47,367 nt of DNA, taken from positions 1-47,367 of the forward strand of contig JAFGIA010000057.1 in the NCBI GenBank assembly GCA_016929795.1, written 5' to 3'. Both the position numbers and the translations under genes were made by a program. Numbering within the stretch: the first letter of the stretch is position 1; each line of letters starts with the position of its first letter. Of the stretch, positions 24,518-24,772 are shown one piece after another. Under the pieces are notes generated by a model. The model saw nothing but the letters and a program-made list of their open reading frames with translations. It did no database searches and was not told where the DNA came from. Origin of the DNA: Anaerolineae bacterium. Its GTDB lineage: Bacteria; Chloroflexota; Anaerolineae; JAAYZQ01.

Positions 24518-24772
24518 ATGAGCCTGCATCCTCTGGCAGGGAAGCCAGCCCCCCATGAACTGCTGGCCAATGTGCCGAGGCTCGTCTCGGCCTACTATAT
24601 TGCAGAGCCTGACCTGTCTGATCCGGCGCAGAAGGTAGCCTTTGGCACATCGGGCACCGAGGAGATTTACAAGATCTATGCCGAGAGTTTTCGTGGCCAA
24701 GATCATCTGCGCACGATCTTGGGCGAGGCGCAAGAGATCGTAGCTGCCGCGTTCGCGGAGGCGGGGCTGTAA
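24518..24772 (+). pseudogene. Phosphoglucomutase with a ~460-codon in-frame internal deletion
   Basis: This 84-aa frame is the two ends of a phosphoglucomutase. Residues 1-46 (HPLAGKPAP, then VAFGTSG) match the N-terminus of alpha-D-glucose-phosphate-specific Pgm up to its FGTSG loop. Residues 45-84 (SGTEEIYKIYAESFRG and the final helix) match the C-terminus, where intact enzymes have RPSGTED-YKIY-ESF. The join lies at the shared Ser-Gly(-Thr) codons near 24650-24658, as expected from recombination at microhomology. The phosphoserine loop, metal-binding DPDxDR loop and sugar-binding GEESAG loop are all missing, so it cannot be an active mutase. A ribosome-binding site (GAAGGGAG) is intact and the frame is open, so a small protein may still be made. 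E. coli Pgm has 546 residues. An assembly artefact is possible. Confidence 0.85.

What the first reader, a model, noticed from the sequence alone, without database searches (positions are those of the whole stretch)
24518..24772. Phosphoglucomutase reduced to its two ends: an 84-codon in-frame internal deletion
The frame joins the Pgm N-terminus, up to FGTSG, directly to the Pgm C-terminus, from SGTEEIYKIY. About 460 codons are lost, including the phosphoserine, metal and sugar loops. The join falls exactly where the two phosphate-binding loops share Ser-Gly(-Thr) codons, pointing to a microhomology deletion. The ribosome-binding site, spacing and frame are intact, so a mini-protein may still be made. 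Loss of Pgm from a glycogen/pentose operon would block glucose-1-phosphate entry unless another Pgm exists, or could mark a new small regulatory protein.
Basis: partly seen in the sequence, partly recalled or inferred. Interest (0 to 1): 0.75.

Follow-up and report, generated by a model that had tools for sequence, protein, structure and literature searches.

The report
Phosphoglucomutase gene gutted by internal deletion
A sugar-enzyme gene in a Chloroflexi-like bacterium has lost its whole middle and keeps only its two ends in frame; it is most likely a fresh dead remnant (or a library chimera), not a new small protein.

Summary
In detail: 24518-24772 encodes 84 aa, Pgm (TIGR01132) residues 1-46 joined at a shared Ser-Gly to the Pgm C-terminus. 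About 464 codons are gone; RBS and frame are intact; the middle is nowhere else in the window. A relative (G005) has an intact 556-codon pgm at the matching operon place, so this is an internal deletion. The remnant keeps all 32 strongly conserved profile positions tested, so the event is recent, or the join is a library chimera. Intact relatives share 2-8 bp at the two Ser-Gly sites: enough for illegitimate recombination, too short for k-mer collapse. No inherited mini-Pgm family emerged: 120 of 231 listed proteins are two-ended, but in 105 breakpoint clusters; one other shares this join. Two-ended transketolases occur too (8 of 120 listed, against 27 of 120 for Pgm). Of the 80 best genome loci (345 found), 77 are full-length and none is two-ended. 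Of 40 matching among 400 Chloroflexota genomes, one has a different two-ended Pgm beside an intact pgm. The predicted fold is unconfident (pLDDT 54.6). Verdict: a non-polar gene remnant, ordinary in kind. Whether the organism has another Pgm could not be tested.

The parts
24518..24772 (+). 84-codon remnant ORF of pgm (two ends joined in frame)
24518..24655 (+). Pgm N-terminal 46 codons, through FGTSG
   Evidence: profile positions 1-46; 80% identity over residues 2-46 to intact Pgm of L001
24650..24772 (+). Pgm C-terminal part from SGTEEIYKIY to the stop
   Evidence: profile positions 511-549
24648..24655 (+). join zone; bases compatible with both ends (CATCGGGC; 8 identical bases shared at this register in intact L013)
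24504..24510 (+). Shine-Dalgarno-like AAGGGAG, 7 nt before the ATG
   Evidence: read; intact G005 pgm has AAGGAG before its ATG
23555..24502 (+). upstream neighbour: polyphosphate kinase 2, intact ORF, ends 15 bp before the remnant
   Evidence: TIGR03707 above cut-off
24821..29032 (+). downstream neighbour: GH13-like plus 4-alpha-glucanotransferase (GH77) protein, intact ORF, SD-like AAGGAG at 24812-24817
   Evidence: ortholog in the same cluster as intact pgm in G005
21469..23526 (+). GAPDH and L-lactate dehydrogenase genes, in the same order relative to pgm in G005

Best explanation
It is the remnant of an ordinary alpha-D-glucose-phosphate phosphoglucomutase gene. One recent illegitimate-recombination (replication-slippage type) event between short matching bases at the two Ser-Gly loops removed about 1.39 kb. 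The event was in frame, so start, RBS, stop and operon spacing are unchanged and translation of the GH/malQ gene downstream is not disturbed. The encoded 84-aa peptide lacks all catalytic loops and is most likely unfolded and degraded. Shown: the two ends, the frame, an intact gene at the matching place in a relative's operon, and the lack of decay. Inferred: the deletion mechanism, its recency, the non-polar benefit, the fate of the peptide, and cover by another Pgm/PMM paralogue.
For: Two-ended match to Pgm. Intact 556-codon pgm in the matching operon place in G005/L140: gapdh - ldh - AspT/YidE-type transporter - pgm - methylglyoxal synthase - GH/malQ. Middle absent from the window. No mismatch at 19 N- and 16 C-terminal columns that are at least 90% conserved, and 0 of 17 and 0 of 15 on the trimmed profile. 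Longest identical runs of 2-8 bp around the Ser-Gly register in 49 intact genes. In the pool of two-ended Pgms, overlap of 2 or more residues at the join occurs in 0.49 of 109 (11 of 120 with long unaligned gaps left out) versus 0.28 of simulated joins, as short-repeat joining would give. 10 of 10 family genomes have at least two matches to the Pgm model, 7 of 10 have one over the cut-off, and G005 has two over it.
Against: No reads and no whole genome for the window, so neither a library chimera nor a minor allele is excluded. The Ser-Gly register is only moderately strong as a repeat: it ranks among the top 3 in-frame repeats in 7 of 49 intact genes. Perfect conservation of both ends could also reflect selection on a made peptide. 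The operons are not identical: G005 has a transporter gene where the window has PPK2, and a methylglyoxal synthase gene that the window lacks there.
Confidence: 0.72

Rival explanations
1. The join is not in the genome. It is a chimera made in library preparation or amplification (template switching at short matching bases), or a rare allele taken up by the assembler.
For: The protein is a singleton seen on one contig. No decay at conserved sites. Of the 80 best genome loci, 77 have a full-length Pgm and the other 3 are split or cut, not two-ended. The overlap excess at joins would be produced by template switching as well.
Against: The repeat (2-8 bp in relatives) is too short for k-mer collapse. 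A chimera would have to dominate coverage in a 47-kb contig (inference). A different two-ended Pgm lies on a 134-kb contig in G256 that also has an intact copy.
Confidence: 0.2
2. The mini-ORF is a functional small protein derived from Pgm (regulator, or partner of the full enzyme).
For: Intact RBS and frame. All strongly conserved residues kept. One other listed protein (P0083) has the same Ser-Gly join and P0004 a near one.
Against: Lacks every catalytic loop. AlphaFold mean pLDDT 54.6, pTM 0.34. Among 40 matching of 400 Chloroflexota genomes no copy of this join; G256 has a different one. 120 two-ended Pgms fall into 105 breakpoint clusters. As a pool they have more mismatches at conserved sites than one-ended pieces: 0.135 vs 0.021 in the N part, 0.039 vs 0.009 in the C part (confounded by lineage, and P0001 itself has none).
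Confidence: 0.05
3. The in-frame remnant is kept because it preserves translation of the downstream gene (translational coupling), so in-frame joins survive where out-of-frame joins do not. (An addition to the best explanation rather than its opposite.)
For: In G256 the 61-aa two-ended Pgm ORF overlaps the next gene's start as ATGA. In the window the ORF sits 15 bp after ppk2 and 48 bp before the next ATG.
Against: The window's downstream gene has its own SD-like AAGGAG at 24812-24817. Out-of-frame joins were not counted; protein collections show only in-frame ones.
Confidence: 0.15

Closest known systems
Phosphoglucomutase, alpha-D-glucose-1,6-bisphosphate dependent (TIGR01132; PDB 2fuv, 3na5, 9v68)
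   Same: Both ends of the protein, start region and C-terminal SGTE loop, conserved residues and operon setting
   Different: About 464 internal codons missing, including all catalytic loops; 72.5 bits against a cut-off of 778.05
Internal-deletion remnants by illegitimate recombination at short direct repeats (class recalled from general bacterial genetics; no paper opened)
   Same: One internal segment lost between short matching bases, flanks intact
   Different: In frame and with no visible decay, so it still reads as a small ORF
Two-ended Pgm ORF in G256 (L154:1579-1764)
   Same: Pgm N- and C-ends joined in frame, Chloroflexota
   Different: Different breakpoints, 61 codons, coexists with an intact pgm, overlaps the next gene

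Membership tests
Functional Pgm (TIGR01132) | score above the family cut-off of 778.05 bits | tested here: not met
   72.5 bits, two stretches
Functional Pgm (TIGR01132) | phosphoserine (TPSHNP), metal (DGDRHG) and sugar (GEES) loops (roles recalled) | tested here: not met
   present in intact L001 Pgm, absent from P0001
Functional Pgm (TIGR01132) | enzyme activity | not testable with these tools
   none
Internal-deletion remnant (pseudogene) | intact ortholog at the matching place in a relative | tested here: met
   G005:C223, pgm 556 codons; the same cluster holds gapdh, ldh and the GH/malQ ortholog
Internal-deletion remnant (pseudogene) | short repeat at both ends of the lost segment | tested here: inconclusive
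   2-8 bp around the same register of 49 intact relatives; the ancestral gene itself is not available
Internal-deletion remnant (pseudogene) | relaxed selection (decay) in the remnant | tested here: not met
   0 of 17 and 0 of 15 conserved sites changed: too recent, selected, or an artefact
Conserved mini-Pgm protein family | same join inherited in several related genomes | tested here: not met
   none with this join among 40 matching of 400 Chloroflexota genomes; one other listed protein with the same join, in a diverged sequence (P0083)
Conserved mini-Pgm protein family | self-contained fold | tested here: inconclusive
   pLDDT 54.6, pTM 0.34 with an 11-row alignment

The most novel reading that the evidence does not exclude
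pgm is a recurrent target of in-frame, non-polar internal deletion in natural populations, because loss of Pgm is favoured at times (for example by phages that need Pgm-dependent surface sugars) while in-frame joins spare the operon. The window would be a fresh example of such a selected loss.
Probability: 0.12. Interest if true: 0.5.

Novelty: new member of a known kind. Interest (0 to 1): 0.22.

Why it matters
Mostly as a caution: short ORFs made of the two ends of an enzyme turn up readily in metagenome protein sets and should not be called new small proteins without a check for inherited joins. If the apparent excess for Pgm over transketolase (27 vs 8 of 120 listed; one control enzyme only) survives a proper DNA-level census, it would point to recurrent loss of Pgm in nature and give a way to test what selects for it.

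Tried and rejected
Assembly collapse by a shared k-mer: rejected as unlikely, since the longest identical run around the register is 2-8 bases in 49 relatives.

Middle of Pgm moved elsewhere in the window: no tblastn hit outside 24000-25000 at E 1e-2.

Conserved mini-Pgm family: I aligned 8 two-ended Pgms and searched with the profile (only the 7999 candidates sharing most words were scored, 120 listed). 93 of the 111 newly listed proteins are two-ended, but breakpoints scatter. These counts are selected by a two-ended query and a capped list; they are not rates.

Control: a two-ended transketolase query gave 8 two-ended of 120 listed (247 hits) against 27 of 120 listed (323 hits, the query itself among the 27) for Pgm. 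With the looser cut E<10 the counts are 9 and 29 of 120. By eye P0142 may be a tenth transketolase case. The two are not strictly comparable: end conservation, lineage and dispensability differ, and only one control enzyme was run.

Null model for join overlap: 580 of 600 simulated joins gave a clean two-part match, and one of these was outside the range used for the fractions; 11 of 120 real joins were outside that range. The simulated divergence (15% random changes) is arbitrary.

Literature: six searches, listings and starts of abstracts only; no paper was opened. 'phosphoglucomutase + in-frame deletion + microhomology' gave 0 papers; 'phosphoglucomutase + pseudogene + in-frame deletion' gave 4, none on a mini-Pgm by title. 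One search lists papers on pgm mutation and phage resistance, e.g. PMC13101476 by its title.

Full report
What is there. The ORF at 24518-24772 (84 codons) is made of the first 46 residues of phosphoglucomutase and its last 38-40, sharing one Ser-Gly. TIGR01132 matches it in two stretches, solved Pgm chains match at both ends, for 9v68 at residues 1-48 and 509-542, and a 550-position profile from 49 intact Pgms at 1-46 and 511-549. Pfam gives no match to the 84-aa protein. The ATG has an AAGGGAG 7 nt upstream, 15 bp separate it from the ppk2 stop, and the next gene's likely ATG is at 24821, with an AAGGAG 3 nt before it.

Setting. The + strand cluster is sugar kinase, transketolase, transaldolase, ribose-5-phosphate isomerase, GAPDH, lactate dehydrogenase, PPK2, remnant, and a GH13-like plus GH77 4-alpha-glucanotransferase protein. 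These neighbours have open frames with family matches. The window's genome is not held. Relatives come from the genome of L001 (titled a Chloroflexi MAG) and its family, G001-G010.

Ancestral state. In G005:C223 an intact 556-codon pgm lies between gapdh/ldh and the GH/malQ ortholog. The gene before pgm is a transporter of the AspT/YidE type and the one after it a methylglyoxal synthase. The window therefore holds the same gene place with the middle gone, though its neighbours differ in part. The middle is not elsewhere in the window. 7 of 10 family genomes have a Pgm over the TIGR01132 cut-off, G005 has two, and 10 of 10 have at least two matches to the model, most of them below cut-off and presumably Pgm/PMM paralogues.

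The join. The window reads GGC ACA TCG GGC ACC GAG over 24644-24661. In 49 intact relatives the longest identical run around the Ser-Gly register of the two loops is 2 to 8 bases. In L013 the shared run is 8 and both flanks read as in the window. That is enough for slippage or illegitimate recombination and far below assembler word sizes (recalled: 21 or more). It is not an outstanding repeat: it is among the three best in-frame repeats in only 7 of 49 genes.

Age. The remnant has no change at 19 + 16 strongly conserved alignment columns or at 17 + 15 on the trimmed profile. The two-ended Pgms as a pool do: mismatch rate 0.135 against 0.021 in one-ended pieces for the N part, and 0.039 against 0.009 for the C part. 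That comparison mixes lineages. So the window's deletion is very recent, or the join arose in the laboratory, or the peptide is selected.

Is it a family? The protein search gave 323 hits, 120 listed, 27 of them two-ended by profile, the query itself included. A control with transketolase ends gave 247 hits, 120 listed, 8 two-ended. With a looser cut the counts are 29 and 9. A profile search with eight two-ended Pgms raised the pool to 120 two-ended of 231 listed proteins, in 105 breakpoint clusters. Only P0083 has the window's Ser-Gly join, and P0004 lies in the same cluster with a near join. Joins in the pool overlap by 2 or more residues in 0.49 of 109 against 0.28 in simulation, which fits short-repeat joining, by recombination or by template switching. 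In genomes such ORFs look rare. Of 345 loci found, the best 80 were kept; 77 have a full-length Pgm frame, and the other three are a contig edge (L007) and two frames split in the middle (L006, L064), none two-ended. Among 400 Chloroflexota genomes 40 have matches, and none has the window's join. One, G256, has a 61-aa two-ended Pgm with other breakpoints besides a full-length copy on the same 134-kb contig, and its stop overlaps the start of a histidine-phosphatase-type gene. Only that one short frame was looked at further.

Function. The peptide has none of the catalytic loops, and the AlphaFold model is poor (mean pLDDT 54.6, pTM 0.34; helices 13-16, 19-29 and 61-82). I therefore take it as a non-functional remnant, with the in-frame join sparing the operon. 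Loss of glucose-1-phosphate entry cannot be claimed, since further matches to the Pgm model are usual in this family. Selection for loss, for example by phages, is a guess; one search lists papers on pgm and phage resistance, which I did not open.

Verdict. A real and correctly read two-ended Pgm ORF, ordinary in kind; a modest chance of a library chimera; a small chance of a functional mini-protein.

Noticed in passing
L154:1579-1764 (G256:C35): A second, independent two-ended Pgm ORF of 61 aa in a Chloroflexota genome that also has a full-length pgm about 17 kb away; its stop overlaps the start of a histidine-phosphatase-type gene (ATGA).
   Followed up: partly
protein collection, P0002-P0351: Two-ended, internally deleted Pgm ORFs are frequent among the listed hits (120 of 231), several on long contigs; two-ended transketolases also occur (8 of 120 listed). 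Causes (true deletions or chimeras) unknown.
   Followed up: partly
window 24821-29032: A single gene of about 1400 codons joins a GH13-like amylase region and a full GH77 4-alpha-glucanotransferase; the ortholog in G005 lies in the same cluster as intact pgm.
   Followed up: no
L140 4401-6041 vs window 23555-24502: The gene just upstream of pgm differs between relatives: an AspT/YidE-type transporter in G005, polyphosphate kinase 2 in the window.
   Followed up: no
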